From: Primulina eburnea
Lineage: Eukaryota > Streptophyta > Magnoliopsida > Lamiales > Gesneriaceae
Assembly: GCF_022965805.1 (NCBI RefSeq)
Contig: NW_027331688.1
Coordinates: 62,001 to 126,000 of the forward strand
Reading direction: 5' to 3'
DNA length: 64,000 bases
Positions 1 to 57,153 of this stretch are shown here, piece after piece. How positions within the stretch are numbered: the first letter of the stretch is position 1; each line of letters begins with the position of its first letter. Below the pieces are notes generated by a model that ran no database searches, was not told the DNA's origin, and saw only the letters and a list, made by a program, of their open reading frames with translations. The translations under genes were made by a program, and so were the position numbers.

Positions 1-2228
1 TTCTTAGTCCTAGGCAACCCCAAATAAAGTCCATAGAAATGTCAATCCAAGTTCTTTTTAAGAATAGCACGCAAAAGTGTTCCCAAAGTTCTATTGACAA
101 CTTCAGTTTGTCCATCCGTTTGAGGATGACAAGTAGTAGAAAACAACAATTTTGTGCCAAGTTTAGCCCATAAAGTCTTCCAAAAGTAACTCAAGAATTT
201 AACATCGCGACCAGAAACAATAGTCCTAGGCATGCCATGCAACCTAACGACTTCTCTAAAGAACAAATCCGCAATGTTTGAAGCATCATCGGTTTTATGA
301 CAAGCTATAAAATGTGCCATCTTAGAGAATCTATCCACAACAACAAAAATAGAATCCCTACCCTTCTTAGTCCTAGGCAACCCCAAAATAAAGTCCATAG
401 AAATGTCAATCCAAGTTCTTTTTAAGAATAGCACGCAAAAGTGTTCCCAAAGTTCTATTGACAACTTCAGTTTGTCCATCCGTTTGAGGATGACAAGTAG
501 TAGAAAACAACAATTTTGTGCCAAGGTTTAGCCCATAAAGTCTTCCAAAAGTAACTCAAGAATTTAACATCGCGACCAGAAACAATAGTCCTAGGCATGC
601 CATGCAACCTAACGACTTCTCTAAAGAACAAATCCGCAATGTTTGAAGCATCATCGGTTTTATGACAAGCTATAAAATGTGCCATCTTAGAGAATCTATC
701 CACAACAACAAAAATAGAATCCCTACCCTTCTTAGTCCTAGGCAACCCCAAAATAAAGTCCTATAGAAATGTCAATCCAAGTTCTTTTTATGAATAGCAC
801 GCAAAAGTGTTCCCAAAGTTCTATTGACAACTTCAGTTTGTCCATCCGTTTGAGGATGACAAGTAGTAGAAAACAACAATTTTGTGCCAAGTTTAGCCCA
901 TAAAGTCTTCCAAAAGTAACTCAAGAATTTAACATCGCGACCAGAAACAATAGTCCTAGGCATGCCATGCAACCTAACGACTTCTCTAAAGAACAAATCC
1001 GCAATGTTTGAAGCATCATCGGTTTTATGACAAGCTATAAAATGTGCCATCTTAGAGAATCTATCCACAACAACAAAAATAGAATCCCTCCCCTTCTTAG
1101 TCCTAGGCAACCCCAAAATAAAGTCCATAGAAATGTCAATCCAAGTTCTTTTTAAGAATAGCACGCAAAAGTGTTCCCAAAGTTCTATTGACAACTTCAG
1201 TTTGTCCATCCGTTTGAGGATGACAAGTAGTAGAAAACAACAATTTTGTGCCAAGTTTAGCCCATAAAGTCTTCCAAAAGTAACTCAAGAATTTAACATC
1301 GCGACCAAGAAACAATAGTCCTAGGCATGCCATGCAACCTAACGACTTCTCTAAAGAACAAATCCGCAATGTTTGAAGCATCATCGGTTTTATGACAAGC
1401 TATAAAATGTGCCATCTTAGAGAATCTATCCACAACAACAAAAATAGAATCCCTACCCTTCTTAGTCCTAGGCAACCCCAAAATAAAGTCCATAGAAATG
1501 TCAATCCAAGTTCTTTTTAAGAATAGCACGCAAAAGTGTTCCCAAAGTTCTATTGACAACTTCAGTTTGTCCATCCGTTTGAGGATGACAAGTAGTAGAA
1601 ACCAACAATTTTGTGCCAAGTTTAGCCCATAAAGTCTTCCAAAAGTAACACAAGAATTTAACATCGCGACCAGAAACAATAGTCCTAGGCATGCCATGCA
1701 ACCTAACGACTTCTCTAAAGAACAAATCCGCAATGTTTGAAGCATCATCGGTTTTATGACAAGCTATAAAATGTGCCAACTAAGAGAATCTATCCACAAC
1801 AACAAAAATAGAATTCCTCCCCTTCTTAGTCCTAGGCAACCCCAAAATAAAGTCCATAGAAATGTCAATCCAAGTTCTTTTTAAGAATAGCACGCAAAAG
1901 TGTTCCCAAAGTTCTATTGACAACTTCAGTTTGTCCATCCGTTTGAGGATGACAAGTAGTAGAAAACAACAATTTTGTGCCAGGTTTAGCCCATAAAGTC
2001 TTCCAAAAGTAACTCAAGAATTTAACATCGCGACCAGAAACAATAGTCCTAGGCATGCCATGCAACCTAACGACTTCTCTAAAGAACAAATCCGCAATGT
2101 TTGAAGCATCATCGGTTTTATGACAAGCTATAAAATGTGCCATCTTAGAGAATCTATCCACAACAACAAAAATAGAATCCCTACCCTTCTTAGTCCTAGG
2201 CAACCCCAAAATAAAGTCCATAGAAATG
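1..2228 (-). repeat. Variable satellite monomers at the left of the window
   Basis: These six monomers carry more single-base indels and substitutions than the block to their right. Examples are an extra G near 525 (GCCAAGGTTT), an extra T near 762 (GTCCTATAG), an extra A near 1307 (CGACCAAGAAAC), and the combination CCAACTAAGAG plus GAATTCCTCCCC near 1777-1820. The same private variants recur 20-55 kb away (for example near 22945, 26716 and 30594), so these monomers belong to the heterogeneous subfamily found from 17 kb onward rather than to the homogeneous block. Confidence 0.75.
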
Positions 2229-3319
2229 TCAATCCAAGTTCTTTTTAAGAATAGCACGCAAAAGTGTTCCCAAAGTTCTATTGACAACTTCAGTTTGTCC
2301 ATCCGTTTGAGGATGACAAGTAGTAGAAAACAACAATTTTGTGCCAAGTTTAGCCCATAAAGTCTTCCAAAAGTAACTCAAGAATTTAACATCGCGACCA
2401 GAAACAATAGTCCTAGGCATGCCATGCAACCTAACGACTTCTCTAAAGAACAAATCCGCAATGTTTGAAGCATCATTGGTTTTATGACAAGCTATAAAAT
2501 GTGCCATCTTAGAGAATCTATCCACAACAACAAAAATAGAATCCCTACCCTTCTTAGTCCTAGGCAACCCCAAAATAAAGTCCATAGAAATGTCAATCCA
2601 AGTTCTTTTTAAGAATAGCACGCAAAAGTGTTCCCAAAGTTCTATTGACAACTTCAGTTTGTCCATCCGTTTGAGGATGACAAGTAGTAGAAAACAACAA
2701 TTTTGTGCCAAGTTTAGCCCATAAAGTCTTCCAAAAGTAACTCAAGAATTTAACATCGCGACCAGAAACAATAGTCCTAGGCATGCCATGCAACCTAACG
2801 ACTTCTCTAAAGAACAAATCCGCAATGTTTGAAGCATCATCGGTTTTATGACAAGCTATAAAATGTGCCATCTTAGAGAATCTATCCACAACAACAAAAT
2901 AGAATCCCTACCCTTCTTAGTCCTAGGCAACCCCAAAATAAAGTCCATAGAAATGTCAATCCAAGTTCTTTTTAAGAATAGCACGCAAAAGTGTTCCCAA
3001 AGTTCTATTGACAACTTCAGTTTGTCCATCCGTTTGAGGATGACAAGTAGTAGAAAACAACAATTTTGTGCCAAGTTTAGCCCATAAAGTCTTCCAAAAG
3101 TAACTCAAGAATTTAACATCGCGACCAGAAACAATAGTCCTAGGCATGCCATGCAACCTAACGACTTCTCTAAAGAACAAATCCGCAATGTTTGAAGCAT
3201 CATCGGTTTTATGACAAGCTATAAAATGTGCCATCTTAGAGAATCTATCCACAACAACAAAAATAGAATCCCTACCCTTCTTAGTCCTAGGCAACCCCAA
3301 AATAAAGTCCATAGAAATG

Positions 3320-3802
3320 TCAATCCAAGTTCTTTTTAAGAATAGCACGCAAAAGTGTTCCCAAAGTTCTATTGACAACTTCAGTTTGTCCATCCGTTTG
3401 AGGATGACAAGTAGTAGAAAACAACAATTTTGTGCCAAGTTTAGCCCATAAAGTCTTCCAAAAGTAACTCAAGAATTTAACATCGCGACCAGAAACAATA
3501 GTCCTAGGCATGCCATGCAACCTAACGACTTCTCTAAAGAACAAATCCGCAATGTTTGAAGCATCATCGGTTTTATGACAAGCTATAAAATGTGCCATCT
3601 TAGAGAATCTATCCACAACAACAAAAATAGAATCCCTACCCTTCTTAGTCCTAGGCAACCCCAAAATAAAGTCCATAGAAATGTCAATCCAAGTTCTTTT
3701 TAAGAATAGCACGCAAAAGTGTTCCCAAAGTTCTATTGACAACTTCAGTTTGTCCATCCGTTTGAGGATGACAAGTAGTAGAAAACAACAATTTTGTGCC
3801 AA
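3320..3802 (-). pseudogene. Representative satellite ORF: integrase core fragment
   Basis: This 160-residue open stretch stands for the near-identical ones repeated every 364 bp. Residues 1-36 are the previous monomer read in a wrong frame; integrase homology runs from about residue 37 ([10 protein letters not shown]) to the end ([11 protein letters not shown]), stopping at TGA just past the monomer junction. In the D,D(35)E family the three metal-binding acids should be at residues 44 (D, in SMDF), 105 and 141 (E, in DGQTE). Residue 105 is Gly (SGRD instead of SDRD), and the 35-residue gap to E141 confirms the alignment. The N-terminal HHCC zinc domain and the C-terminal domain are missing. 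No initiation context or complete domain supports a real protein. I call it a fossil coding fragment inside a satellite. Confidence 0.85.
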
Positions 3803-6800
3803 GTTTAGCCCATAAAGTCTTCCAAAAGTAACTCAAGAATTTAACATCGCGACCAGAAACAATAGTCCTAGGCATGCCATGCAACCTAACGACTTCTCTA
3901 AAGAACAAATCCGCAATGTTTGAAGCATCATCGGTTTTATGACAAGCTATAAAATGTGCCATCTTAGAGAATCTATCCACAACAACAAAAATAGAATCCC
4001 TACCCTTCTTAGTCCTAGGCAACCCCAAAATAAAGTCCATAGAAATGTCAATCCAAGTTCTTTTTAAGAATAGCACGCAAAAGTGTTCCCAAAGTTCTAT
4101 TGACAACTTCAGTTTGTCCATCCGTTTGAGGATGACAAGTAGTAGAAAACAACAATTTTGTGCCAAGTTTAGCCCATAAAGTCTTCCAAAAGTAACTCAA
4201 GAATTTAACATCGCGACCAGAAACAATAGTCCTAGGCATGCCATGCAACCTAACGACTTCTCTAAAGAACAAATCCGCAATGTTTGAAGCATCATCGGTT
4301 TTATGACAAGCTATAAAATGTGCCATCTTAGAGAATCTATCCACAACAACAAAAATAGAATCCCTACCCTTCTTAGTCCTAGGCAACCCCAAAATAAAGT
4401 CCATAGAAATGTCAATCCAAGTTCTTTTTAAGAATAGCACGCAAAAGTGTTCCCAAAGTTCTATTGACAACTTCAGTTTGTCCATCCGTTTGAGGATGAC
4501 AAGTAGTAGAAAACAACAATTTTGTGCCAAGTTTAGCCCATAAAGTCTTCCAAAAGTAACTCAAGAATTTAACATCGCGACCAGAAACAATAGTCCTAGG
4601 CATGCCATGCAACCTAACGACTTCTCTAAAGAACAAATCCGCAATGTTTGAAGCATCATCGGTTTTATGACAAGCTATAAAATGTGCCATCTTAGAGAAT
4701 CTATCCACAACAACAAAAATAGAATCCCTACCCTTCTTAGTCCTAGGCAACCCCAAAATAAAGTCCATAGAAATGTCAATCCAAGTTCTTTTTAAGAATA
4801 GCACGCAAAAGTGTTCCCAAAGTTCTATTGACAACTTCAGTTTGTCCATCCGTTTGAGGATGACAAGTAGTAGAAAACAACAATTTTGTGCCAAGTTTAG
4901 CCCATAAAGTCTTCCAAAAGTAACTCAAGAATTTAACATCGCGACCAGAAACAATAGTCCTAGGCATGCCATGCAACCTAACGACTTCTCTAAAGAACAA
5001 ATCCGCAATGTTTGAAGCATCATCGGTTTTATGACAAGCTATAAAATGTGCCATCTTAGAGAATCTATCCACAACAACAAAAATAGAATCCCTACCCTTC
5101 TTAGTCCTAGGCAACCCCAAAATAAAGTCCATAGAAATGTCAATCCAAGTTCTTTTTAAGAATAGCACGCAAAAGTGTTCCCAAAGTTCTATTGACAACT
5201 TCAGTTTGTCCATCCGTTTGAGGATGACAAGTAGTAGAAAACAACAATTTTGTGCCAGGTTTAGCCCATAAAGTCTTCCAAAAGTAACTCAAGAATTTAA
5301 CATCGCGACCAGAAACAATAGTCCTAGGCATGCCATGCAACCTAACGACTTCTCTAAAGAACAAATCCGCAATGTTTGAAGCATCATCGGTTTTATGACA
5401 AGCTATAAAATGTGCCATCTTAGAGAATCTATCCACAACAACAAAAATAGAATCCCTACCCTTCTTAGTCCTAGGCAACCCCAAAATAAAGTCCATAGAA
5501 ATGTCAATCCAAGTTCTTTTTAAGAATAGCACGCAAAAGTGTTCCCAAAGTTCTATTGACAACTTCAGTTTGTCCATCCGTTTGAGGATGACAAGTAGTA
5601 GAAAACAACAATTTTGTGCCAAGTTTAGCCCATAAAGTCTTCCAAAAGTAACTCAAGAATTTAACATCGCGACCAGAAACAATAGTCCTAGGCATGCCAT
5701 GCAACCTAACGACTTCTCTAAAGAACAAATCCGCAATGTTTGAAGCATCATCGGTTTTATGACAAGCTATAAAATGTGCCATCTTAGAGAATCTATCCAC
5801 AACAACAAAAATAGAATCCCTACCCTTCTTAGTCCTAGGCAACCCCAAAATAAAGTCCATAGAAATGTCAATCCAAGTTCTTTTTAAGAATAGCACGCAA
5901 AAGTGTTCCCAAAGTTCTATTGACAACTTCAGTTTGTCCATCCGTTTGAGGATGACAAGTAGTAGAAAACAACAATTTTGTGCCAAGTTTAGCCCATAAA
6001 GTCTTCCAAAAGTAACTCAAGAATTTAACATCGCGACCAGAAACAATAGTCCTAGGCATGCCATGCAACCTAACGACTTCTCTAAAGAACAAATCCGCAA
6101 TGTTTGAAGCATCATCGGTTTTATGACAAGCTATAAAATGTGCCATCTTAGAGAATCTATCCACAACAACAAAAATAGAATCCCTACCCTTCTTAGTCCT
6201 AGGCAACCCCAAAATAAAGTCCATAGAAATGTCAATCCAAGTTCTTTTTATGAATAGCACGCAAAAGTGTTCCCAAAGTTCTATTGACAACTTCAGTTTG
6301 TCCATCCGTTTGAGGATGACAAGTAGTAGAAAACAACAATTTTGTGCCAAGTTTAGCCCATAAAGTCTTCCAAAAGTAACTCAAGAATTTAACATCGCGA
6401 CCAGAAACAATAGTCCTAGGCATGCCATGCAACCTAACGACTTCTCTAAAGAACAAATCCGCAATGTTTGAAGCATCATCGGTTTTATGACAAGCTATAA
6501 AATGTGCCATCTTAGAGAATCTATCCACAACAACAAAAATAGAATCCCTACCCTTCTTAGTCCTAGGCAACCCCAAAATAAAGTCCATAGAAATGTCAAT
6601 CCAAGTTCTTTTTAAGAATAGCACGCAAAAGTGTTCCCAAAGTTCTATTGACAACTTCAGTTTGTCCATCCGTTTGAGGATGACAAGTAGTAGAAAACAA
6701 CAATTTTGTGCCAAGTTTAGCCCATAAAGTCTTCCAAAAGTAACTCAAGAATTTAACATCGCGACCAGAAACAATAGTCCTAGGCATGCCATGCAACCTA

Positions 6801-8164
6801 ACGACTTCTCTAAAGAACAAATCCGCAATGTTTGAAGCATCATCGGTTTTATGACAAGCTATAAAATGTGCCATCTTAGAGAATCTATCCACAACAACAA
6901 AAATAGAATCCCTACCCTTCTTAGTCCTAGGCAACCCCAAAATAAAGTCCATAGAAATGTCAATCCAAGTTCTTTTTAAGAATAGCACGCAAAAGTGTTC
7001 CCAAAGTTCTATTGACAACTTCAGTTTGTCCATCCGTTTGAGGATGACAAGTAGTAGAAAACAACAATTTTGTGCCAAGTTTAGCCCATAAAGTCTTCCA
7101 AAAGTAACTCAAGAATTTAACATCGCGACCAGAAACAATAGTCCTAGGCATGCCATGCAACCTAACGACTTCTCTAAAGAACAAATCCGCAATGTTTGAA
7201 GCATCATCGGTTTTATGACAAGCTATAAAATGTGCCATCTTAGAGAATCTATCCACAACAACAAAAATAGAATCCCTACCCTTCTTAGTCCTAGGCAACC
7301 CCAAAATAAAGTCCATAGAAATGTCAATCCAAGTTCTTTTTAAGAATAGCACGCAAAAGTGTTCCCAAAGTTCTATTGACAACTTCAGTTTGTCCATCCG
7401 TTTGAGGATGACAAGTAGTAGAAAACAACAATTTTGTGCCAAGTTTAGCCCATAAAGTCTTCCAAAAGTAACTCAAGAATTTAACATCGCGACCAGAAAC
7501 AATAGTCCTAGGCATGCCATGCAACCTAACGACTTCTCTAAAGAACAAATCCGCAATGTTTGAAGCATCATCGGTTTTATGACAAGCTATAAAATGTGCC
7601 ATCTTAGAGAATCTATCCACAACAACAAAAATAGAATCCCTACCCTTCTTAGTCCTAGGCAACCCCAAAATAAAGTCCATAGAAATGTCAATCCAAGTTC
7701 TTTTTAAGAATAGCACGCAAAAGTGTTCCCAAAGTTCTATTGACAACTTCAGTTTGTCCATCCGTTTGAGGATGACAAGTAGTAGAAAACAACAATTTTG
7801 TGCCAAGTTTAGCCCATAAAGTCTTCCAAAAGTAACTCAAGAATTTAACATCGCGACCAGAAACAATAGTCCTAGGCATGCCATGCAACCTAACGACTTC
7901 TCTAAAGAACAAATCCGCAATGTTTGAAGCATCATCGGTTTTATGACAAGCTATAAAATGTGCCATCTTAGAGAATCTATCCACAACAACAAAAATAGAA
8001 TCCCTACCCTTCTTAGTCCTAGGCAACCCCAAAATAAAGTCCATAGAAATGTCAATCCAAGTTCTTTTTAAGAATAGCACGCAAAAGTGTTCCCAAAGTT
8101 CTATTGACAACTTCAGTTTGTCCATCCGTTTGAGGATGACAAGTAGTAGAAAACAACAATTTTG

Positions 8165-10354
8165 TGCCAGGTTTAGCCCATAAAGTCTTCCAAAAGTAAC
8201 TCAAGAATTTAACATCGCGACCAGAAACAATAGTCCTAGGCATGCCATGCAACCTAACGACTTCTCTAAAGAACAAATCCGCAATGTTTGAAGCATCATC
8301 GGTTTTATGACAAGCTATAAAATGTGCCATCTTAGAGAATCTATCCACAACAACAAAAATAGAATCCCTACCCTTCTTAGTCCTAGGCAACCCCAAAATA
8401 AAGTCCATAGAAATGTCAATCCAAGTTCTTTTTAAGAATAGCACGCAAAAGTGTTCCCAAAGTTCTATTGACAACTTCAGTTTGTCCATCCGTTTGAGGA
8501 TGACAAGTAGTAGAAAACAACAATTTTGTGCCAAGTTTAGCCCATAAAGTCTTCCAAAAGTAACTCAAGAATTTAACATCGCGACCAGAAACAATAGTCC
8601 TAGGCATGCCATGCAACCTAACGACTTCTCTAAAGAACAAATCCGCAATGTTTGAAGCATCATCGGTTTTATGACAAGCTATAAAATGTGCCATCTTAGA
8701 GAATCTATCCACAACAACAAAAATAGAATCCCTACCCTTCTTAGTCCTAGGCAACCCCAAAATAAAGTCCATAGAAATGTCAATCCAAGTTCTTTTTAAG
8801 AATAGCACGCAAAAGTGTTCCCAAAGTTCTATTGACAACTTCAGTTTGTCCATCCGTTTGAGGATGACAAGTAGTAGAAAACAACAATTTTGTGCCAGGT
8901 TTAGCCCATAAAGTCTTCCAAAAGTAACTCAAGAATTTAACATCGCGACCAGAAACAATAGTCCTAGGCATGCCATGCAACCTAACGACTTCTCTAAAGA
9001 ACAAATCCGCAATGTTTGAAGCATCATCGGTTTTATGACAAGCTATAAAATGTGCCATCTTAGAGAATCTATCCACAACAACAAAAATAGAATCCCTACC
9101 CTTCTTAGTCCTAGGCAACCCCAAAATAAAGTCCATAGAAATGTCAATCCAAGTTCTTTTTAAGAATAGCACGCAAAAGTGTTCCCAAAGTTCTATTGAC
9201 AACTTCAGTTTGTCCATCCGTTTGAGGATGACAAGTAGTAGAAAACAACAATTTTGTGCCAAGTTTAGCCCATAAAGTCTTCCAAAAGTAACTCAAGAAT
9301 TTAACATCGCGACCAGAAACAATAGTCCTAGGCATGCCATGCAACCTAACGACTTCTCTAAAGAACAAATCCGCAATGTTTGAAGCATCATCGGTTTTAT
9401 GACAAGCTATAAAATGTGCCATCTTAGAGAATCTATCCACAACAACAAAAATAGAATCCCTACCCTTCTTAGTCCTAGGCAACCCCAAAATAAAGTCCAT
9501 AGAAATGTCAATCCAAGTTCTTTTTAAGAATAGCACGCAAAAGTGTTCCCAAAGTTCTATTGACAACTTCAGTTTGTCCATCCGTTTGAGGATGACAAGT
9601 AGTAGAAAACAACAATTTTGTGCCAGGTTTAGCCCATAAAGTCTTCCAAAAGTAACTCAAGAATTTAACATCGCGACCAGAAACAATAGTCCTAGGCATG
9701 CCATGCAACCTAACGACTTCTCTAAAGAACAAATCCGCAATGTTTGAAGCATCATCGGTTTTATGACAAGCTATAAAATGTGCCATCTTAGAGAATCTAT
9801 CCACAACAACAAAAATAGAATCCCTACCCTTCTTAGTCCTAGGCAACCCCAAAATAAAGTCCATAGAAATGTCAATCCAAGTTCTTTTTAAGAATAGCAC
9901 GCAAAAGTGTTCCCAAAGTTCTATTGACAACTTCAGTTTGTCCATCCGTTTGAGGATGACAAGTAGTAGAAAACAACAATTTTGTGCCAAGTTTAGCCCA
10001 TAAAGTCTTCCAAAAGTAACTCAAGAATTTAACATCGCGACCAGAAACAATAGTCCTAGGCATGCCATGCAACCTAACGACTTCTCTAAAGAACAAATCC
10101 GCAATGTTTGAAGCATCATCGGTTTTATGACAAGCTATAAAATGTGCCATCTTAGAGAATCTATCCACAACAACAAAAATAGAATCCCTACCCTTCTTAG
10201 TCCTAGGCAACCCCAAAATAAAGTCCATAGAAATGTCAATCCAAGTTCTTTTTAAGAATAGCACGCAAAAGTGTTCCCAAAGTTCTATTGACAACTTCAG
10301 TTTGTCCATCCGTTTGAGGATGACAAGTAGTAGAAAACAACAATTTTGTGCCAG
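8165..10354 (-). repeat. Local dimeric higher-order repeat (728 bp)
   Basis: The monomer variant TGCCAGG (Pro instead of Leu in the minus-strand reading AKPGTK) occurs at 8165, 8893, 9621 and 10349, spaced exactly 728 bp, alternating with the standard TGCCAAG monomer. Two-monomer units have therefore been duplicated three times in this stretch. The same variant at 5253 lies exactly eight monomers upstream. Confidence 0.8.
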
Positions 10355-41078: not shown

Positions 41079-41083
41079 GAAAT
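41079..41083. repeat. Target-site duplication of copia-A, right copy (GAAAT)
   Basis: It repeats 31866-31870 and follows the LTR end CTCTAACA. Confidence 0.95.
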
Positions 41084-43548: not shown

Positions 43549-43550
43549 AG

Positions 43551-43562
43551 TGGTATCAGAGC
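43551..43562 (+). other. copia-B primer binding site
   Basis: TGGTATCAGAGC lies two bases after the LTR end. It is the usual plant retrotransposon site for priming by the initiator tRNA-Met 3' end. Confidence 0.92.
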
Positions 43563-45374: not shown

Positions 45375-46292
45375 ATGTCTTCGATGCGCAATTCGATATC
45401 TACAATACTCGACAAACACATATTAACTGGACCTAATTACCTCACTTGGCTAAGAAATTTGAAAATAGTCTTAAATTCGGAAAGGGTAACATATACACTA
45501 ACTCAGTCGCCCCCTGTTGAGGCTCCGACTGACTGCAATCCTGAGGAATTGCAGGCTTACAAGGAATGGTGTGACCATGACTTGATAGCCAGGTGTTATA
45601 TGCTGACTTCTATGAACGATGAGCTACAGAGGCGTTTTGAGGGTGCAAAGAGTGCTGCTGACATTCATTTGCAACTCAAAGAGCTCTTTGGTGAGCAAAC
45701 ACGACCTCTAAGGCATGCTACCGTCAAGGAGCTGATCACTTTGCGCATGCGAGATGGGACCTCGGTCCATGAGCATGGCCTAAAGGTGATCGGGCTCGTG
45801 GACAAGCTCGTTGGCATGGATCTGATCTTGCCTTCGGAGTTGACCACCGACGTGTTGCTGTTATCACTGCCTAGCTCATTTGATCCTTTTGTGGTGAACT
45901 TCAACATGAACAAGATGGAACCGACCCTTGAGGAGTTGGTGAACATGCTTGTTACGTTTGAATCCACCATCAAGCAAGAGAAGTTGGTTCTTTATGTGGG
46001 TTCTTCATCTGGTACGAAGATTGATCCACATGGGAATGGAAAGAAGAGTTCTTTCCAACGTCCCGAGAAGAACGAGCCCTTGTTGAGGCAATCTCCGAAT
46101 CCCGTTGTGGCAGCCAGACCAGTTAAGGCTGACAAGACTTGTGATGTTTGTCATCACTGCAAGAAGCCTGGACATTGGAAGCGAAATTGCAAGGAATATC
46201 TGGCCCAGAAAAGTTCTGGAAATGGTATGTTCTACATTGAAGTAAACATTTTAATTAACTCTACTTCTTGGGTATTGGATACCAAATATTGA
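45375..46292 (+). CDS. gag: copia-B Gag, full-length frame
   Basis: A 305-residue frame from ATG (MSSMRNSISTILDKHILTGP) encoding the copia Gag that would form the virus-like particle and bind element RNA. Residues about 10-205 are the copia-type gag polypeptide region (WLRNLKIVLNS, AYKEWCDHDLIARCYMLTSM, LPSSFDPFVVNFNMNK). A basic linker follows, then the CCHC zinc knuckle at C259, C262, H267 and C272. The frame runs on into the protease start (SWVLDT) and stops at TGA. The protease triad reads DTK at residues 302-304 instead of DTG, with the stop two codons later, so Gag is the only product. Copia-A has the same gene with one frameshift. This is the only long intact coding frame in the window that matches a whole known protein. 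Confidence 0.92.
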   Translation: MSSMRNSISTILDKHILTGPNYLTWLRNLKIVLNSERVTYTLTQSPPVEAPTDCNPEELQAYKEWCDHDLIARCYMLTSMNDELQRRFEGAKSAADIHLQLKELFGEQTRPLRHATVKELITLRMRDGTSVHEHGLKVIGLVDKLVGMDLILPSELTTDVLLLSLPSSFDPFVVNFNMNKMEPTLEELVNMLVTFESTIKQEKLVLYVGSSSGTKIDPHGNGKKSSFQRPEKNEPLLRQSPNPVVAARPVKADKTCDVCHHCKKPGHWKRNCKEYLAQKSSGNGMFYIEVNILINSTSWVLDTKY

Positions 46293-46622
46293 TCACATCT
46301 CTGTAATGTGTTACAGGTGATGGGAAGAAGTAGGAAGCTTAAGGAAGGTGTGACCTTCTTGAGAATGGGCAATGGAGCAAGAGTTGCTTCCAAGGCTGTT
46401 GAGGATGTTTACTTATTGTTGAACAATAGTTTAAGTTAATTTTGTGAGATGTTTTGTTTGTACCTAATTTTGTAAAACATTGTTTCCATTTCTATTATGA
46501 TAAAAATGGATATTCTTGTTTATTTAGCAAAGGTGTTTGCAACATTTACAAGAATGAATGTTTAATTGGTACTTGAGAACTTGAAAAACGATCTCTATAA
46601 CTTAAAAGTAAAAGATATTCTA
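46293..46622 (+). pseudogene. copia-B protease and pre-integrase remnant
   Basis: After the gag stop the sequence still aligns to copia-A: a CNxLQVMG-like stretch, KLKEGVTFLRMGNGARVASK, VEDVYLLLNN, then NGYSCLF-like and YNLKVKDI-like fragments with several stops. The DTG motif is destroyed (ACCAAATATTGATC where copia-A has ACCGGTTGTGACTC). At about 46622 it passes directly to the integrase C-terminal part, as in copia-A. Confidence 0.72.
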
Positions 46623-47160
46623 CTAAATGTCCATTCAAAGGCAGACACCATATGAGATATGGATGGGTAAGCCTCCCAAATATTCTTATCTTAGAATATG
46701 GGAGCCCTGCTTATGTGAAGCAGGTAAGTGGGAGATAAATTGGATTGTTGATCCATTTTATGTTACTTTGTGGGATATCTAAGGAATTAAGATTGGATAT
46801 CATTTCTATCATCCCCTAGAAACAAAGGTGTTTGTTTCTTGGAATGCAACCTTTTTGGAAAGGGATTTTCTATTGGATAGAAAAAGGCAGATGATAGAAC
46901 TCGAAGAGGTTCGAGAGAAACCCACAATTATAGAACCCACACCCGATGAGCCAAGAGAGGAGATACAAGCTCCTAGCAGATACGAGAAAGTCTCGAGACC
47001 ACCTATAAGGTATGGTCAGCTTCTTGAAGAAGGCCATGATGAGCCTAACCATGGATGTGATCCATGGACCTTCAAGGAAGCGTTATCTGATGCCAATTCA
47101 TCCAAGTGACTTGAAGAAATGGAATCTGAGTTGAATTCCATGCATTCGAACCAAGTGTAG
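46623..47160 (+). pseudogene. copia-B integrase C-terminal remnant and integrase-RT linker
   Basis: Pieces of the integrase C-terminal region (YEIWMGKPPKYSYLRIWGSP) are readable across frame changes. 46828-47109 is open: FVSWNATFLERDFLLDRKRQ, then EPTPDEPREEIQAPS and FKEALSDANSSK. It ends at TGA (Trp codon TGG in copia-A). A second stop, TAG at 47158-47160 after SNQV, is shared with copia-A. No HHCC or DDE catalytic core is present. Confidence 0.85.
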
Positions 47161-47862
47161 GATCTTGTGGATCCACCTGTGGGAACTGTTCCCACAGCGA
47201 CTTGGGGAGGATGGGAAGGTGTTGACCTTCAAGGCGCGATTGGTGGCAAAAGGATGTACTCAAAGACAAGGAGTTGACTTTGAGGAAACCTTTTCCCAAT
47301 CGCAATGTTCAAGTCCATAAGGATTTTATTAGCCATAGCTGCATAGTATGACTATGAAATATGGCAGATGGATGTCAAGACAAACTTTCTTAAATGGGGA
47401 TTTTAAGAAAGTTATTTACATGTCTTAACCTGAAGGGTTTACATCTATCGGAAGTGAGCATATGGTATGTAAACTTCAGAGATCTATTTATGATCTAAAG
47501 CAGGCATCAAGGAGTTGGAACCTTAGATTCGATAGTACAATCAAAGAGTTTGATTTACTAAGAATCATGAGGGACCCTATGTGTATAAGAAGGTCAGTGG
47601 GAGTGTTGTGACATTCCTGGTGCTTTATGTTGATGACATTCTAATCATTGGGAATGATGTAGGAATGTTGCAATCAACAAAGATATGGTTAGCGAGTAAG
47701 TTCTCGATGAAGGACTTGGGTGAAGCATCTTTTGTATTGGGATACAGATCTATTGAGATAGATCGAAAAGATGGCTTGGTCTCACCCAGTCCACATACAT
47801 TGATACCATCGTGAAGCAGTTCTTGATGGATGAGTCCATGAGAGGACATCTACCAGTGTGTC
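47161..47862 (+). pseudogene. copia-B reverse transcriptase, multiply disrupted
   Basis: RT homology is in several frames: MFKSIRILLAIAA then a stop replacing Trp, YEIWQMDVKT with an extra base after it (CTTAAATGGGG), MS-stop-PEGF (CAA to TAA), [19 protein letters not shown] in another frame, and at 47581-47814 LYVDDILIIGNDVG with YVDD at 47626-47637. The YVDD segment ends at a stop (IPS then TGA). The one-base loss in TTTTCCCAATCG matches the loss in copia-A. No active enzyme can be made. Confidence 0.87.
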
Positions 47863-48609
47863 ATGGCGTGTCCCTATCCAAGTCTGTCTCCCAAGACAGA
47901 TGCAGAGATAGTGGCGATGACACGCATTCCGAATGCTTCGGAAATTGGTAATATCATGTATGGGATGATATCTACACGTCCTGACGTGGCGTTTGCACTA
48001 TGTGTAGTGAAAGGATATCAATCGAACCCTGGTCTTCCACACCTGAAAGCTGTGAAAGACATCCTCAAGTTGTTGAGAAGGACCAATAAGTTGTTCTTGG
48101 TCTATGGGGGTAGAGAACTGAAATTGGAAGGCTATACCGACTCTAGCTTCCAAAGCGATATCGATAACTCGAAGTCAACCTCTAGGTTTGTATTCATGCT
48201 CAAAGGTGCTGCTGTCTCTTGGAAGAGTTCCAAGCAAGACAATATTACGGATTCCAGCATAGAGGCCGAATACATTGCTGCATCAGATGCAGCAAGAGAG
48301 GCTGTTTGGATAAGGAATTTCGTCCAAGAGTTGGACGTCATTCCTAATGGAATTGCTCCTATCCCGGTGTTGTGTGACAACACGGGAGCTATAGCTCAAG
48401 CAAAGGAGCCAAGGTCTCATCAGAAATCCAAACTCGTATTGAGAAAGTACCACATCCTCGTAGAGATTGTGGAAAGAAGAGATGTGTCTATTGACAAAGT
48501 CGGCTCCACAGATTATGTTGTTGATCCACTAGCTAAGCCTTTACCTGGACCATTGTTCGACAAGCATCGCGAATCAATGGGTTTTAAGCATAAGGGTAGT
48601 TGGCTCTAG
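47863..48609 (+). pseudogene. copia-B RT C-terminus plus RNase H, long open fragment
   Basis: 248 codons stay open to the natural pol end. They cover the RT C-terminal part (SPKTDAEIVAMTRIP, GNIMYGMISTRPDVAFAL) and RNase H with its acidic residues ([31 protein letters not shown]), then RKYHIL and DPLAKPLPGPLFDKHRESMG. It ends at TAG, three bases before the polypurine tract. It is only the tail of the polyprotein. A one-base deletion just upstream separates it from the earlier frame, and there is no reason to think the internal ATG is used. Copia-A's version has an extra frameshift and a stop. Confidence 0.88.
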
Positions 48610-48611
48610 TG

Positions 48612-48623
48612 CAAGTGGGAGAT
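48612..48623 (+). other. copia-B polypurine tract
   Basis: CAAGTGGGAGAT directly before the 3' LTR start TGTTAGAG, identical to copia-A. Confidence 0.87.
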
Positions 48624-50770
48624 TGTTAGAGTAGGTGCCCGTCGAGCCAAGTGTTGGCCGAGTGTTCACAATGAAACTCTATGAATAAGCAGTCTTTATT
48701 TTAATAATATTTGAAATTATTACTTTGGCAAATCTTTATCTGTATACCCATGCTAGCTGCATAGATAAAGCCCTTGAATATACAAATAGTAGAAAGAATA
48801 TGAGATGCTCATATGATGAGTATCATGAAACTCATATTTGTAATACTGTATATTCTAAACGGTTCCTAGTCGATTCAGCCGCCACTAAGAAGGATATAGG
48901 CCGCTTGAGTTAGAGACTAGTATCTGCGATGTGAGTACCATGTTTCATTGGTAGGGGACATTGTGATGTCCGAACATGCAGATAGGTGCTCCTTGTAGAG
49001 TGCACTGAACAACCCTCCATAAAAGGACTTTCCAAGTGGTTCTCACTTATCGAGTGGAAAAGTCCTGGTTTATGGTTGTACAGAATTAGTCCTTATGACC
49101 CGGGACAACATTGAGACTCTATGTGCTAGAATTACACTTTGACTTGTTTACCGACTCTCATGGGGTCATCAGGTGGCAAGGTTGGGTGTTCTGTCGAAAC
49201 ACATAGGAGTCGATGCATTGTAGTCGGGGATTCACCGCTTACCTTCGGGTATGGATATCCTATGTTTTATCATGTGTATGTAGATCGAAATCTCTGGCCA
49301 GAGTATGGTTGTAATTATGAAAGGTGTTTCATAGATTGCACCATCGATGCAACTACGACATGACACATAGTATCGATTCATAGACAACTCTCGATAAACC
49401 AATGGTTGTCGAATCGGTCGGGATATATGAGTTGAAGGGACCGTACTGTACGCTAACCATAATTGAATGGTTCTTGCAGGCACTATCATGTGATACCTAG
49501 GGAATCACGTAAGCGATGCTGCTAGGCGTTTAACGTGATTGGTTGGGTACTATCAGACTTGAGTTCTGACGTTCTTACTATCAAGGAGTTGATAAGTAAG
49601 AATGGAGCAATTGGGGTATGCTCGAATAAGGACATGTTTAGTCCGAATCACATGAAGATGTGAACCCACGGCTAGTTGTATCAATGAACCATTGAGGGCC
49701 ACACAAGTACTAGCTTTGTAAATCCCGATGAGAAGTAAAATAGTTCAATGTGTTGAACGGCTTATAAAGGAGTTTATAAGCGTAAGTAAAATTAGAAGTA
49801 TGACTTCTATAAAGGAGAAAATAGTTCAATGTGTTGAACAACTTATAAATGAGTTTATAAGTGTAAAGAAAAATAGAAGTATGACTTCTATGAGAGAAAT
49901 ATAAATTTTGATTTATGGAAGTGTTCCTAAATTAAAATTTGGCCAAGTGAATAATGTAATTGAAAATTGTGATTTTCATAGACATTATTATGGACTAAAT
50001 AAATTAATTCAAGTGTTGAATTAATTAGACACTAGTGGGCCTAGTAGAGCCCAAATAATTAAATTAATTCAAGTGTTGGATTAATTAAATAATATTGAGT
50101 CTTGTAGAGCTCAATTAAAATAATTATTTAAACTAGTGGGAGTTGAGTAAATTCAAGTAATGTTTAAATAGTCTCAAATGTGTTTGAGATATTTAAATTT
50201 AGTCCAAAGTTTTTAATTTGATTAAAAACTATATTATATGCATGCATGGGAGGTGAAGAGTTGGGGAATACTTTTGATTAAAATAATGGTTGGCATGCAA
50301 CTTTTTGTATCAACTTTTTGCAACCCCAAGACTAGATTCTCCTCCCTCATTCTACACACACATGGCCGAAACCTCCCTTCCTATTCTCTCCATTTTTCTC
50401 TTCTTTTGTGTTCTTCAATTTGTTGGAGAAAACACACACTTCTCTTTGAAAAATCCTCACATTTTTCTAGTGCAAATTGTGAGGGGATCTACCTAGTTGG
50501 TGGTGGGCCTAATTTGAAGGAAAGATTCAAGGATTTGGAGGAGGAGCTTGTAGATCTTCATGCCTTGAGGAGCTTTGTTGTTTGACAACAAAGTTGGAGC
50601 CACAATCAACTTTTAAAGTTGATAGGTAATACTTTCTTAACATCCTATGAATGTTTTTGTTTTGTAAATATTACACAAGATTTTTATATGGGGTGGCCGA
50701 AATTATGCCTCAAAATTTTCGAATTTTTGCTTCCGTTGCGTTTCCGGCCACCGTAACCGGTCCGCTTTCA
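48624..50770 (+). repeat. copia-B 3' LTR
   Basis: 2147 bp, the same length as the 5' copy and identical by eye except one G/T difference. It contains the same 81-bp tandem duplication (49743 and 49824). Confidence 0.96.
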
Positions 50771-50775
50771 TTCCT
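50771..50775. repeat. Target-site duplication of copia-B, right copy (TTCCT)
   Basis: It repeats 41397-41401 immediately after the LTR end CGCTTTCA. Confidence 0.95.
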
Positions 50776-53726
50776 CCCCTTCTTAGTTCTAGGCAACCCC
50801 AAAATAAAGTCCATAGAAATGTCAATCCAAGTTCTTTTTAAGAATAGCACGCAAATGTGTCCCAAAGTTCTATTGACAACTTCAGTTTGTCCATCCGTTT
50901 GAGGATGACAAGTAGTAGAAAACAACAATTTTGTGCCAGGTTTAGCCCTTAAAGTCTTCCAAAAGTAACTCAAGAATTTAACATCGCGACCAAAAACAAT
51001 AGTCCTAGGCATGCCATGCAACCTAACAACTTCTCTAAAGAACAAATCCGCAATGTTTGAAGCATCATCGGTTTTATGACAAGCTATAAAATGTGCCATC
51101 TTAGAGAATCTATCCACAACAACAAAAATAGAATCCCTACCCTTCTTAGTCCTAGGCAACCCCAAAATAAAGTCCATAGAAATGTCAATCCAAGTTCTTT
51201 TTAAGAATAGCACGCAAAAGTGTTCCCAAAGTTCTATTGACAACTTCAGTTTGTCCATCCGTTTGAGGATGACAAGTAGTAGAAAACAACAATTTTGTGC
51301 CAAGTTTAGCCCATAAAGTCTTCCAAAAGTAACTCAAGAATTTAACATCGCGACCAGAAACAATAGTCCTAGGCATGCCATGCAACCTAACGACTTCTCT
51401 AAAGAACAAATCCGCAATGTTTGAAGCATCATCGGTTTTATGACAAGCTATAAAATGTGCCATCTTAGAGAATCTATCCACAACAACAAAAATAGAATCC
51501 CTACCCTTCTTAGTCCTAGGCAACCCCAAAATAAAGTCCATAGAAATGTCAATCCAAGTTCTTTTTAAGAATAGCACGCAAAAGTGTTCCCAAAGTTCTA
51601 TTGACAACTTCAGTTTGTCCATCCGTTTGAGGATGACAAGTAGTAGAAAACAACAATTTTGTGCCAAGTTTAGGCCCATAAAGTATTCCAAAAGTAACTC
51701 AAGAATTTAACATCGCGACCAGAAACAATAGTCCTAGGCATGCCATGCAACCTAACGACTTCTCTAAAGAACAAATCCGCAATGTTTGAAGCATCATCGG
51801 TTTTATGACAAGCTATAAAATGTGCCATCTTAGATAATCTATCCACAACAACAAAAATAGAATCCCTACCCTTCTTAGTCCTAGGCAACCCCAAAATAAA
51901 GTCCATAGAAATGTCAATCCAAGTTCGTTTTATGAATAGCACGCAAAAGTGTTCCCAAAGTTCTATTGACAACTTCAGTTTGTCCATCCGTTTGAGGATG
52001 ACAAGTAGTAGAAAACAACAATTTTGTGCCAGGTTTAGCCCATAAAGTCTTCCAAAAGTAACTCAAGAATTTAACATCGCGACCAAAAACAATAGTCCTA
52101 GGCATGCCATGCAACCTAACGACTTCTCTAAAGAACAAATCCGCAATGTTTGAAGCATCATCGGTTTTATGACAAGCTATAAAATGTGCCATCTTAGAGA
52201 ATCTATCCACAACAACAAAAATAGAATCCCTACCCTTCTTAGTCCTAGGCAACCCCAAAATAAACTCTATTGAAATGTCAATCCAAGTTCTTTTTATGGA
52301 TAGCACGCAAAAGTGTTCCAAAAGTTCTATTGACAACTTCAGTCTGTCCATCTGTTTGAGGATGAAAAGTAGTAGAAAACAACAATTTTGTGCCAAGTTT
52401 GGCCCATAAAGTATTCCAAAAGTAACTCAAGAATTTAACATCGCGACCAGAAACAATAGTCCTAGGCATGCCATGCAACCTAACGACTTCTCTAAAGAAC
52501 AAATACGCAATGTTTGAAGCATCGTTGGTTTTATGACAAGCTATAAAATGTGCCATCTTAGAGAATCTATCCACAACAACAAAAATAGAATCCCTACCCT
52601 TCTTAGTCCTAGGCAACCCCAAAATAAAGTCCATAGAAATGTCAATCCAAGTTCGTTTTATAAATAGCTCGCAAAAGTGTTCCCAAAGTTCTATTGACAA
52701 CTTCAGTTTGTCCATCCGTTTGAGGATAACAAGTAGTAGAAACGAACAATTTTGTGCCAAGTTTAGCCCATAAAGTCTTCCAAAAGTAACACAAGAATTT
52801 AACAACGCGACCAGAAACAATAGTCCTAGGCATACCTTGCAACCTAACGACTTCTCTAAAGAACAAATCCGCAATGTTTGAAGCATCATCGGTTTTATGA
52901 CAAGCTATAAAATGTGCCAACTAAGAGAATCTATCCACAACAACAAAAATAGAATTTCTCCCCTTCTTAGTCCTAAGGCAACCCCAAAATAAAGTCCATA
53001 GAAATGTCAATCCAAGTTTTTTTAAAAATAGCACGCAAAAGTGTTCCCAAAGTTCTATTGACAACTTCAGTTTGTCCATCCGTTTGAGGATGACAAGTAG
53101 TAGAAAACATCAATTTTGTGCCAAGTTTAGCCCATAAAGTATTCCAAAAGTAACTCAAGAATTTAACATCGCGTCCAGAAACAATAGTCTTAGGCATGCC
53201 ATGCAACCTAACGACTTCTCTAAAGAACAAATCCGCAATGTTTGAAGCATCATTGGTTTTATGACAAGCTATAAAATGTGCCATCTTAGAGAATCTATCC
53301 ACAACAACAAAAAAGAATCCCTACCCTTCTTAGTCCTAGGCAATTCCAAAATAAAGTCCATAGAAATGTCAATCCAAGTTCTTTTTAAGAATAGCACTCA
53401 AAAGTGTTCCCAAAGTTCTATTGACAACTTCAGTTTGTCCATCCGTTTGAGGATGACAAGTAGTAGAAAACAACAATTTTGTGCCAGGTTTAGCCCATAA
53501 AGTCTTCCAAAAGTAACTCAAGAATTTAACATCGCGTCCAGAAACAATAGTCTTAGGCATGCCATGCAACCTAACGACTTCTCTAAAGAACAAATCCGCA
53601 ATGTTTGAAGCATCATTGGTTTTATGACAAGCTATAAAATGTGCCATCTTAGAGAATCTATCCACAACAACAAAAAAAGAATCCCTACCCTTCTTAGTCC
53701 TAGGCAACCCCAAAATAAAGTCCATG

Positions 53727-54009
53727 GAAATGTCAATCCAAGTTCTTTTTAAGAATAGCACGCAAAAGTGTTCCCAAAGTTTTATTGACAACTTCAGTTT
53801 GTCCATTCGTTTGAGGATAACAAGTAGAAGAAAACAACAATTTTGTGCCAAGTTTAGCCCATAAAGTCTTCCAAAAGTAACTAAAGAATTTAACATCGCG
53901 ACCAGAAACAATAGTTCTAGGCATGCCATGCAACCTAACGACTTCTCTAAAGAACAAATCGGCAATGTTTGAAGCATCATTTGTTTTATGACAAGCTATA
54001 AAGACCATA
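53727..54009 (-). repeat. Shortened 283-bp satellite monomer
   Basis: The distance between successive GAAATGTCAATCC points is 283 rather than 364 bp. 81 bp are missing between CTATAAA and the following CATAG, consistent with deletion between two ATAAA copies present in a normal monomer. In the coding reading it fuses SMVF directly to IACHKTND. Confidence 0.85.
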
Positions 54010-55090
54010 GAAATGTCAATCCAAGTTCTTTTTAAGAATAGCACGCAAAAGTGTTCCCAAAGTTTTATTGACAACTTCAGTTTGTCCATCCGTTTGAGGA
54101 TGACAAGTAGTAGAAAACATCAATTTTGTGCCAAGTTTAGCCCATAAAGTATTCCAAAAGTAACTCAAGAATTTAACATCGCGTCCAGAAACAATAGTCT
54201 TAGGCATGCCATGCAACCTAACGACTTCTCTAAAGAACAAATCCGCAATGTTTGAAACATCATTGGTTTTATGACAAGCTATAAAATGTGCCATCTTAGA
54301 GAATCTATCCACAACAACAAAAAAAGAATCCCTACCCTTCTTAGTCCTAGGCAATCCCAAAATAAAGTCCATAGAAATGTCAACTCAAGTTCTTTTTAAG
54401 AATAGCACGCAAAAGTGTTCCCAAAGTTCTATTGACAACTTCAGTTTGTCCATCCGTTTGAGGATGATAAGTAGTAGAAAACAACAATTTTGTGCCAGGT
54501 TTAGCCCATGAAGTCTTCCAAAAGTAACTCAAGAATTTAACATCGCGACCAAAAACAATAGTCCTAGGCATGCCATGCAACCTAACGACTTCTCTAAAGA
54601 ACAAATCCGCAATGTTTGAAGCATCATCGGTTTTATGACAAGCTATAAAATGTGCCATCTTAGAGAATCTATCCACAACAACAAAAATAGAATCCCTACC
54701 CTTCTTAGTCCTAGGCTACCCCAAAATAAACTCTATTGAAATGTCAATCCAAGTTCTTTTTATGAATAGCACGCAAAAGTGTTCCCAAAGTTCTATTGAC
54801 AACTTCAGTCTGTCCATCTGTTTGAGGATGAAAAGTAGTAGAAAACAACAGTTTTGTGCCAAGTTTGGCCCATAAAGTATTCCAAAAGTAACTCAAGAAT
54901 TTAACATCGCGACCAGAAACAATAGTCCTAGGCATGCCATGCAACCTAACAACTTCTCTAAAGAACAAATACGTAATATTTGAAGCATCATTGGTTTTAT
55001 GACAAGCTAGAAAATGTGCCATCTTAGATAATCTATCCACAACAACAAAAATAGAATCCCTACCCTTCTTAGTCCTAGGCAACCCCAAAA

Positions 55091-55266
55091 TAAAGTCCAT
55101 AGAATCCAAGTGCGTTTTAAGAATAGCACGCAAAAGTGTTCCCAAAGTTCTATTGACAACTTCAGTTTGTCCATCCGTTTGAGGATAAAATGTGCCATCT
55201 TAGAGAATCTATCCACAACAACAAAAAAAGAATCCCTACCCTTCTTAGTCCTAGGCAACCCCAAAA
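55091..55266 (-). repeat. Truncated 176-bp satellite monomer, fourth copy
   Basis: It has the same two deletions as the copies at 17861, 20945 and 31316 and again follows a diverged monomer (starting 54731). The monomers after it are the closest match to the copia-A and copia-B insertion surroundings. Confidence 0.85.
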
Positions 55267-57148
55267 TAAAGTCCATAGAAATGTCAATCCAAGTTCTTTT
55301 TCAGAATAGCACGCAAAAGTGTTCCCAAAGTTCTATTGACAACTTCAGTTTGTCCATCCGTTTGAGGATGACAAGTAGTAGAAAACAACAATTTTGTGCC
55401 TGGTTTAGCCCATAAAGTCTTCCAAAAGTAACTCAAGAATTTAACATCGCGACCAGAAACAATAGTCCTAGGCATGCCATGCAACCTAACGACTTCTCTA
55501 AAGAACAAATCCGCAATGTTTGAAGCATCATCGGTTTTACGACAAGCTATAAAATGTGCCAACTAAGAGAATCTATCCACAACAACAAAAATAGAATTCC
55601 TCCCCTTCTTAGTCCTAGGCAACCCCAAAATAAAGTCCATAGAAATGTCAATCCAAGTGCGTTTTAAGAATAGCACGCAAAAGTGTTCCCAAAGTTCTAT
55701 TGACAACTTTAGTTTGTCCATCCGTTTGAAGATGACAAGTAGTAGAAACCTACAATTTTGTGCCAAGTTTAGCCCATAAAGTTTTCCAAAAGTAACACAA
55801 GAATTTAACATCGCGACCAGAAACAATATTCCTAGGCATGCCATGCAACCTAACGACTTCTCTAAAGAACAAATCCGCAATGTTTGAAGCATCATCGGTT
55901 TTATGACAAGCTATAAAATGTGCCAACTAAGAGAATCTATCCACAACAACAAAAATAGAATTCCTCCCCTTCTTAGTCCTAGGCAACCCCAAAATAAAGT
56001 CCATAGAAATGTCAATCCAAGTTCTTTTTAAGAATAGCACGCAAAAGTGTTCCCAAAGTTCTCTTGACAACTTCAGTTTGTCCATCCGTTTGAGGATGAC
56101 AAGTAGTAGAAAACAACAATTTTGTGCCAAGTTTAGCCCATAAAGTCCTCCAAAAGTAACTCAAGAATTTAACATCGCGACCAGAACAATAGTCCTAGGC
56201 ATGCCAAGCAACCTAACGACTTTTCTAAAGAAAAAATCCGCAATGTTTGAAGCATCATCGGTTTTATGACAAGCTATAAAATGTGCCATCTTTGAGAATC
56301 TATCCACAATAACAAAAATAGAATCCCTACCCTTCTTAGTCCTAGGCAACCCCAAAATAAAGTCCATAGAAATGTCAATCCAAGTGCGTTTTAAGAATAG
56401 CACGCAAAAGTGTTCCTAAAGTTCTATTGACAACTTCAGTTTGTCCATCCGTTTGAGGATGACAAGTAGTAGAAACCTACAATTTTGTGCCAAGTTTAGC
56501 CCATAAAGTCTTCCAAAAGTAACACAAGAATTTAACATCGCGACCAGAAACAATATTCCTAGGCATGCCATGCAACCTAACGACTTCTCTAAAGAACAAA
56601 TCCGCAATGTTTGAAGCATCATCGGTTTTATGACAAGCTATAAAATGTGCCAACTAAGAGAATCTATCCACAACAACAAAAATAGAATTCCTCCCCTTCT
56701 TAGTCCTAGGCAACCCCAAAATAAAGTCCATAGAAATGTCAATCCAAGTTCTTTTTAAGAATAGCACGCAAAAGTGTTCCCAAAGTTCTCTTGACAACTT
56801 CAGTTTGTCCATCCGTTTGAGGATGACAAGTAGTAGAAAACAATAATTTTGTGTCAGGTTTAGCCCATAAATTCTTCAAAAAGTAACTCAAGAATTTAAC
56901 ATCGTGACCAGAAACAATGGTCCTAGACATGCCATGAAACCTAACGACTTATCTAAAGAACAAATCCGCAATGTTTGAAGCATCATCGGTTTTATGACAA
57001 GCTAGAAAATGTGTCATCTTAGATAATCTATCCACAACAACAAAAATAGAATCCCTCCCCTTCTTAGTCCTAGGCAACCCCAAAATAAACTCTATTGAAA
57101 TGTCAATCCAAGTTCTTTTTAAGAATAGCACGCAAAAGTGTTCCCAAA

Positions 57149-57153
57149 GTTTT
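57149..57153. repeat. Candidate target-site duplication of the gypsy-type element (GTTTT)
   Basis: These are the five bases before the LTR start TGAAACGTCC, inside a satellite monomer of the variant AAAGTTTTATTGAC (also at 53778). The matching copy would lie beyond the window. Confidence 0.45.

What the first reader, a model, noticed from the sequence alone, without database searches (positions are those of the whole stretch)
1..57153. A satellite built from the integrase catalytic core of a Ty3/gypsy element
About 106 monomer equivalents of 364 bp all derive from one segment of pol that spans just the D,D(35)E core, from DISMDF to LLRAILKKN. Satellites from LTR or untranslated parts of retrotransposons are well known in plants. 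One made wholly of a coding integrase core, amplified to tens of kb, is much less usual. The period is also within the common plant satellite size class near two nucleosome lengths. The homology and the period are seen directly; the rarity claim is from general knowledge.
Basis: partly seen in the sequence, partly recalled or inferred. Interest (0 to 1): 0.85.

Follow-up and report, generated by a model that had tools for sequence, protein, structure and literature searches.

The report
Plant satellite from retrotransposon integrase core
A stretch of a dead mobile element's DNA-inserting gene has been copied head to tail into a long non-coding repeat array in a plant genome; repeats born from mobile elements are well known, but this source region is an unusual one.

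Summary
The array is real. The window holds about 106 monomer equivalents of a 364-bp repeat, every BLAST hit on one strand; 102 near-full monomers average 99.15% identity to their consensus. Each monomer corresponds (minus strand) to 121 residues of a Ty3/gypsy integrase core.

Four corrections or extensions.
(1) The array is not continuous over 1-57153: two copia elements (31871-41078, 41402-50770) sit in it, and a third LTR element begins at 57154. All three have 5-bp target duplications.
(2) The second catalytic Asp codon is found in 0 of 457 monomers, 364 is not a multiple of 3, and substitutions look neutral: non-coding DNA.
(3) The monomer occurs on at least 11 contigs of the 812-Mb assembly, with contig-biased variants.
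(4) Array edges fetched from seven other contigs look like LTR-element ends; none shows the rest of this gypsy pol.

Best reading: ordinary satellite dynamics (tandem and block duplication, local homogenisation) seeded by an unusual piece. A 2022 review table lists satellites from gag, LINE ORF2 and a CACTA transposase, none from integrase. Donor element, breakpoints and chromosomal position remain undetermined: the donor searches did not complete.

The parts
1..31870 (-). Satellite array, left piece: about 87.6 monomers of 364 bp (coding sense of the integrase core is the minus strand). Contains three copies of a roughly 182-bp deletion derivative.
   Evidence: extends left beyond the window to contig base 12 (contig 60001-60864 not fetched)
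31871..41078 (-). Copia LTR element E1 inserted in the array; LTRs 31871-33941 and 39007-41078; target duplication GAAAT (31866-31870 and 41079-41083); gag and reverse transcriptase fragments in broken frames
41079..41401 (-). Array piece between E1 and E2 (about 0.9 monomer)
41402..50770 (+). Copia LTR element E2 related to E1, opposite orientation; LTRs 41402-43548 and 48624-50770; target duplication TTCCT (41397-41401 and 50771-50775); gag frame at 45327-46289, pol in pieces
50771..57153 (-). Satellite array, right piece (about 17.5 monomers; 16 near-full monomers, mean 97.4% to consensus, more diverged than the left piece)
57154..64000 (-). LTR element E3 inserted in the array: LTR 57154-60521, short internal part 60522-61746, second LTR 61747 onward (ends 1,114 bases beyond the window); target duplication GTTTT; the array resumes behind it
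17876..18058 (-). Shortened monomer (about 182 bp; consensus positions 105-283 missing), copy 1 of 4
20960..21141 (-). Shortened monomer, copy 2 of 4
31331..31512 (-). Shortened monomer, copy 3 of 4
55106..55288 (-). Shortened monomer, copy 4 of 4; the 871-bp block 54776-55646 around it is 98.7% identical to 31001-31870
2961..16792 (-). Homogenised stretch: 29 of 38 monomers identical to the consensus

Best explanation
This is satellite DNA. A 364-bp piece of the integrase core of one Ty3/gypsy copy, very probably already inactive, was duplicated head to tail, then grew to about 100 kb on this contig alone by unequal exchange and multi-monomer block duplication with local homogenisation. It has no protein product: the frame slips by one base at every monomer junction, the second catalytic Asp is missing, and mutations inside it look neutral. 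It is present on at least 11 contigs and is repeatedly invaded by LTR elements. Shown: the repeat, its source domain, strand uniformity in the window, absence of the Asp codon, neutrality of substitutions, block duplications, presence on at least 11 contigs, insertions after the array formed. Inferred: a single founding duplication (perhaps at a short shared sequence at the junction), unequal exchange as the amplifier, several chromosomal loci, and heterochromatic location.
For: period, copies, one strand; integrase core; best-scoring relative 89% identical over the whole monomer; Asp codon at the second catalytic site in 0 of 457 monomers of 7 contigs, Gly in 435; 23 synonymous, 58 nonsynonymous, 4 stop among 85 distinct substitutions against 20.3, 60.5 and 4.2 expected; P 0.27; four copies of one shortened monomer in similar T1-T2-short-T3 surroundings; in 40 monomers excess variant sharing at lag 8, deficit at lags 1, 3, 7, 11, of 13 lags tested; one run of 21 monomers fixed for 51T>G, another of 10 fixed for the consensus, on the same contig; at least 11 contigs, contig-biased variants; insertions with target duplications GAAAT, TTCCT, GTTTT; no credible gypsy flank in the window.
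Against: The donor element was not found: the genome searches meant for it did not complete. Junction microhomology could not be tested without donor DNA, and the one junction that could be tested, that of the shortened monomer, shows at most 1 base. Reads were not available, so copy number and homogeneity rest on an assembly with visible in-array indels (0.3-1.3 per monomer in the large groups) and one noisy inverted contig end. The 11 contigs could be fragments of fewer loci. Among the 120 best hits listed in each of two protein searches (checked in 23 and 36) none shows the same tandem junction in another genome.
Confidence: 0.85

Rival explanations
1. The tandem repeat first arose inside a gypsy element (for example by abnormal strand transfer in reverse transcription), was spread by retrotransposition, and then expanded at some loci, as for Ogre-derived satellites of Lathyrus.
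For: The monomer is on at least 11 contigs; this route is documented for nine Lathyrus satellites (PMC7004042, passages).
Against: At the array edges examined no gypsy pol flanks a monomer; by eye the edges are LTR-type termini, and the integrase-like hits 2-5 kb away at four of the loci are only about 38-44% identical to the relatives. In the window, 919 of 10,363 tblastn hits of 79 relatives (of 183) overran the core by 5 or more residues upstream or 9 or more downstream, but the overrun part of the longest is near chance (for example 16 of 78, 14 of 65, 17 of 68 identical), and 833 of the 919 lie inside the array itself.
Confidence: 0.2
2. The array is a centromeric or pericentromeric satellite that contributes to chromosome function.
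For: 364 bp is near two nucleosome lengths (size argument only, recalled); arrays occur on many contigs and are nested with LTR elements.
Against: No positional, CENH3 or expression data here; insertion positions within the monomer do not differ clearly from random (15 events); nothing in the sequence demands function.
Confidence: 0.25
3. Assembly artefact: the array is inflated or invented by mis-assembly of repetitive reads.
For: Indels inside arrays; contig end C1157 from about 128.9 kb is inverted, 93.5% identical with 13.1 indels per monomer, which looks like an unpolished fold-back. Homogeneous stretches with isolated shared variants could partly reflect polishing.
Against: At least 11 contigs, two differently fixed homogeneous runs, contig-biased variants and insertions with target duplications.
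Confidence: 0.04
4. A tandem coding gene: a poly-integrase-core protein or domesticated integrase.
For: 65 of 102 monomers are free of stops and indels in the integrase frame.
Against: 364 = 3 x 121 + 1, so the frame is lost at every junction; the second catalytic Asp is absent; substitutions are neutral.
Confidence: 0.01

Closest known systems
Cereal 250-bp centromeric repeat related to cereba gag, and rye E3900 (as described in PMC3648361 section 13 and PMC9659126 Table 1)
   Same: Satellite derived from a coding part of an LTR retrotransposon
   Different: Source is gag (53% amino-acid similarity reported for the 250-bp repeat); here it is the integrase core, with the best-scoring relative 89% identical over the monomer, and no other part of that element was found in the window
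Ogre-derived satellites of Lathyrus sativus (PMC7004042, passages) and PisTR-A of pea (PMC9659126 Table 1)
   Same: Gypsy-derived satellite expanded in long arrays, with retroelements inserted into them
   Different: Those come from 3' UTR tandem repeats already present in the element; here the source is coding DNA and no in-element array was seen
Maize CRM1TR / CRM4TR (PMC3648361, passages and section 13)
   Same: Tandem arrays from a gypsy element, with retrotransposons inserted
   Different: Source is LTR plus UTR
Chenopodium CficCl-61-40 satellite from the CACTA element Jozin, Tnp2 transposase region (PMC9659126 Table 1)
   Same: Source lies in a transposase region, i.e. a coding region for an enzyme that moves DNA
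   Different: DNA transposon rather than an LTR-element integrase

Membership tests
Satellite DNA | Long head-to-tail arrays of near-identical monomers | tested here: met
   array from contig base 12 to 93,870 before the first insertion, in the stretches held (60,001-60,864 not fetched)
Satellite DNA | Present at several places with local homogenisation | tested here: met
   (contigs; whether they are separate chromosomal loci is not known)
Satellite DNA | Non-coding | tested here: met
   (frame slip, neutral substitutions, catalytic Asp absent)
Satellite DNA | Genome fraction and chromosomal band | not testable with these tools
   needs reads and FISH
Ty3/gypsy integrase core (as source) | Similarity to Pfam rve and Ty3 integrase | tested here: met
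Ty3/gypsy integrase core (as source) | D, D, E catalytic triad | tested here: not met
   Asp codon at the second position in 0 of 457 monomers, 3 of them with an indel in or beside the codon; the D-x35-E spacing itself is kept
Ogre-type satellite (array born inside the element) | Monomer arrays found inside gypsy elements in fixed position | tested here: inconclusive
   not seen at the edges examined; genome-wide donor search unanswered
Centromeric satellite | CENH3 association or centromeric location | not testable with these tools
   no ChIP or cytology
Copia (E1, E2) | copia gag and RVT_2, LTR pair, 5-bp target duplication | tested here: met

The most novel reading that the evidence does not exclude
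A segment matching almost exactly the catalytic core domain of a retroviral-type integrase, from an already dead copy, has become a major, perhaps centromeric, satellite of this plant: coding DNA of a DNA-inserting enzyme turned into chromosome-structural DNA that in turn is a favoured landing ground for other LTR elements.
Probability: 0.15. Interest if true: 0.65.

Novelty: new member of a known kind. Interest (0 to 1): 0.4.

Why it matters
It shows that an internal, purely coding piece of a gypsy element, not only LTRs, UTRs or pre-existing tandem parts, can seed a satellite found on many contigs. Because the monomer's source domain is so well conserved, the founding event can be partly read: the founder very probably lacked a catalytic Asp, and the duplicated piece runs from just before DISMDF to KKNL. 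If the donor is found, the breakpoint homology of a satellite's birth could be determined to the base.

Tried and rejected
Related satellite elsewhere: a protein search with a frame-slipped array frame was meant to find other assemblies with the same tandem junction. No frame-slip match was found among the 260 proteins held, 183 of them integrase relatives (four pattern matches there are ordinary ...W-(I/V)DISM starts). Only the 120 best of 7,936 were listed, so this is weak. A scan of viral contigs found no relative. Rfam at gathering threshold found nothing in 31000-64000.

Tandem protein or domesticated integrase: rejected (frame slip, neutrality). Two-nucleosome phasing: a dinucleotide spectrum was inconclusive and I make no claim. 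Hot spots of LTR insertion within the monomer: not supported (15 events placed by hand; P 0.19, 0.97, 0.80 and 0.09 for four statistics).

Microhomology at the shortened-monomer junction: 1 base at most. Microhomology at the monomer junction (a possible overlap around CTTGG between the ...KKNL and PW-IDISM ends) rests on relatives' protein sequence only and is unproven.

E3 was first taken as an element with 2.26-kb LTRs; the flank fetched later shows about 3.37-kb LTRs. An earlier count said 8 contigs for the 457 monomers; the correct number is 7 (C1157 and six others).
Full report
What is there. The window is bases 62001-126000 of contig C1157 (133,149 bp) of an unnamed 812-Mb assembly of 1224 contigs. 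Most of it is one array of a 364-bp repeat: TRF reports 86.4 copies at 1-31411 and 17.3 copies at 50773-57151. BLAST of a majority-rule monomer covers 38,548 bases in three pieces, about 106 monomer equivalents. All 115 hits are on one strand; 102 are near full length, mean identity 99.15%, range 95.06-100%. Such a pattern cannot arise by chance.

Source of the monomer. Read on the minus strand, the monomer opens a 121-residue frame from IDISMDF to [10 protein letters not shown]. It matches Pfam rve, Integrase core domain, at 33.8 bits (cut-off 32.6) and Ty3 Gag-Pol in PDB entry 7q5b over residues 1-120 (E 8.4e-31). A protein search found 7,115 proteins at E of 0.001 or better, of which the best 120 were listed; the best-scoring is 89% identical over the whole monomer, a few others reach 91% over 88-93% of it. 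In relatives the core is typically preceded by PW and followed by K(T/S/M/N)W and the like, so the monomer junction joins the end ...KKNL to the beginning IDISM of the next copy. No other part of a gypsy element of this kind was found in the window: 79 of 183 relatives have at least 15 residues on both sides of the core. Their 10,363 tblastn hits include 919 that overrun the core by 5 or more residues upstream or 9 or more downstream; 833 of these lie inside the array and 86 cross an array edge. The 14 longest overruns, up to 78 residues, are only about 18-25% identical in the overrunning part (one search counted 545 by a slightly stricter margin).

It does not encode an enzyme. Since 364 is not a multiple of three, the frame is lost at each junction. 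The D-x35-E spacing is kept, but the second Asp codon is Gly in 102 of 102 near-full window monomers. In 457 monomers of 7 contigs the Asp codon is found in none: 435 have Gly, 14 Val, 3 Arg, 1 Ser, 1 Ala, and 3 have an indel in or beside the codon. Among relatives with a readable motif, 87 of 94 have SDR, 5 SNR and 2 SGR (120 examined). So the founder very probably lacked it already. Among 85 distinct substitutions inside the window's monomers 23 are synonymous, 58 nonsynonymous and 4 stops, against 20.3, 60.5 and 4.2 expected from the same mutation spectrum (P 0.27). 65 of 102 monomers are still free of stops and indels, which fits a young array and needs no selection.

How it grew. Monomers carry shared variants in a mosaic. 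A distinctive series, T1 - T2 - a shortened monomer of about 182 bp - T3, occurs at four places, from 17155, 20239, 30610 and 54386, with some of the T1 and T3 variants missing in some copies. The 871 bp at 54776-55646 are 98.7% identical to 31001-31870. Within 16793-31870 (40 monomers) variant sharing is high at lag 8 (shuffle fraction 0.010) and low at lags 1, 3, 7 and 11 (fractions 0.009, 0.020, 0.005, 0.003; 13 lags tested, no correction). This points to multi-monomer block duplication. Some stretches are homogenised: at 2961-16792, 29 of 38 monomers equal the consensus. Elsewhere on the contig 21 successive monomers share the single variant 51T>G, and another run of 10 has none. Differently fixed runs argue against a mere polishing effect, though read data would be needed to exclude it.

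Insertions. Copia element E1 (31871-41078, minus) and E2 (41402-50770, plus) are related (92.7% over 7.3 kb) and lie in opposite orientation. Target duplications are GAAAT and TTCCT. LTRs differ by 4 substitutions and 1 indel (E1) and 1 substitution (E2). gag and RVT_2 matches are there, pol in broken frames. The third, E3, starts at 57154; with the flank fetched later it has LTRs of about 3.37 kb, an internal part of about 1.2 kb and target duplication GTTTT, and the array resumes behind it. Three open frames searched from 59410-61746, before the LTR was corrected (one wholly in the corrected internal part, one across its border, one in the LTR), have no Pfam match. On 2,254 bases its LTRs differ by 6 substitutions and 2 indels. 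With a recalled rate of 1.3e-8 per site per year these insertions fall within roughly the last 0.02-0.1 million years; the array is older than they are.

Beyond the window. The array runs from contig base 12 to contig 93870 (window 31870) without interruption in the stretches held (60001-60864 not fetched), and goes on after E3 to about contig 128828, about 102 kb of array in all. From about 128906 the contig holds inverted monomers at 93.5% identity with 13.1 indels per monomer, against 0.3-1.3 in the eight groups of 22 or more monomers; a fold-back sequencing artefact is the likely cause. The monomer was found on 11 contigs (40 of 318 candidates scored, so a lower bound; contigs may be fragments of fewer loci). 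Variants are contig-biased: 18C>A in 48% of C700 monomers and 0-11% elsewhere, 51T>G in 92% of C733 and 0-62% elsewhere. Array edges were seen in C1107, C733, C898, C141, C700, C322 and C682. By eye they end at LTR-type termini (TG... or ...CA); two of them, at C733 and C700, were confirmed by BLAST as the E1/E2 family, and the one at C682 begins like E3. The exception is the inverted junction at the end of C1157. None continues into the rest of this gypsy pol. Integrase-like sequence 2-5 kb from the edge in L020, L022, L025 and L026 is only about 38-44% identical to the relatives in the hits printed, hence not the donor.

Host. The copia gag matches predicted proteins of Zingiber officinale, Henckelia pumila and Primulina best (Henckelia is in Gesneriaceae). 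I infer a flowering plant; the species is not established.

Comparison with the literature. The 2022 review table of satellites from mobile elements (PMC9659126, passages and section 14) lists coding sources gag (Aegilops speltoides, rye), LINE ORF2, CR1 ORF2 and a CACTA transposase, and no integrase. PMC3648361 (passages and section 13) describes maize CRM1TR and CRM4TR from LTR and UTR and cites the wheat/rye gag case. PMC7004042 (passages) describes Lathyrus satellites from Ogre 3' UTRs. The passages shown of PMC6444444, PMC12222929, PMC12371157, PMC9026859 and PMC9460151 held no integrase-derived satellite. Ten searches of an open-licence library brought up none in the listings; I opened 8 papers in part, and most subscription papers are not held.

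Verdict. It is a new member of a known kind, with an unusual source region. Its function, if any, its donor and its breakpoints are open.

Noticed in passing
L015:2829-7146 (contig C1157 end): Array turns to the opposite strand with 93.5% identity and 13.1 indels per monomer; likely an unpolished fold-back read at the contig end.
   Followed up: partly
31871-50770: Two young, related copia elements inserted in opposite orientation 323 bp apart; their pol frames are broken although the LTRs are nearly identical, so they may have been mobilised in trans (inference).
   Followed up: partly
57154-64000 and L015:1-1114: LTR element with about 3.37-kb LTRs and only about 1.2 kb between them; an end that begins like it, judged by eye, also borders the array in L029.
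   Followed up: partly
L018:3563-5638, L024:1-1494, L026:7564-9720: The E1/E2 copia family recurs at the array edge in L018 and L024 and some 5.6 kb from it in L026.
   Followed up: no
17876, 20960, 31331, 55106: A roughly half-length (182-183 bp) monomer derivative recurs at four places with the same junction.
   Followed up: yes
P0030, P0107: Two protein relatives share the Gly in place of the second catalytic Asp; whether by descent or by chance is unknown.
   Followed up: no
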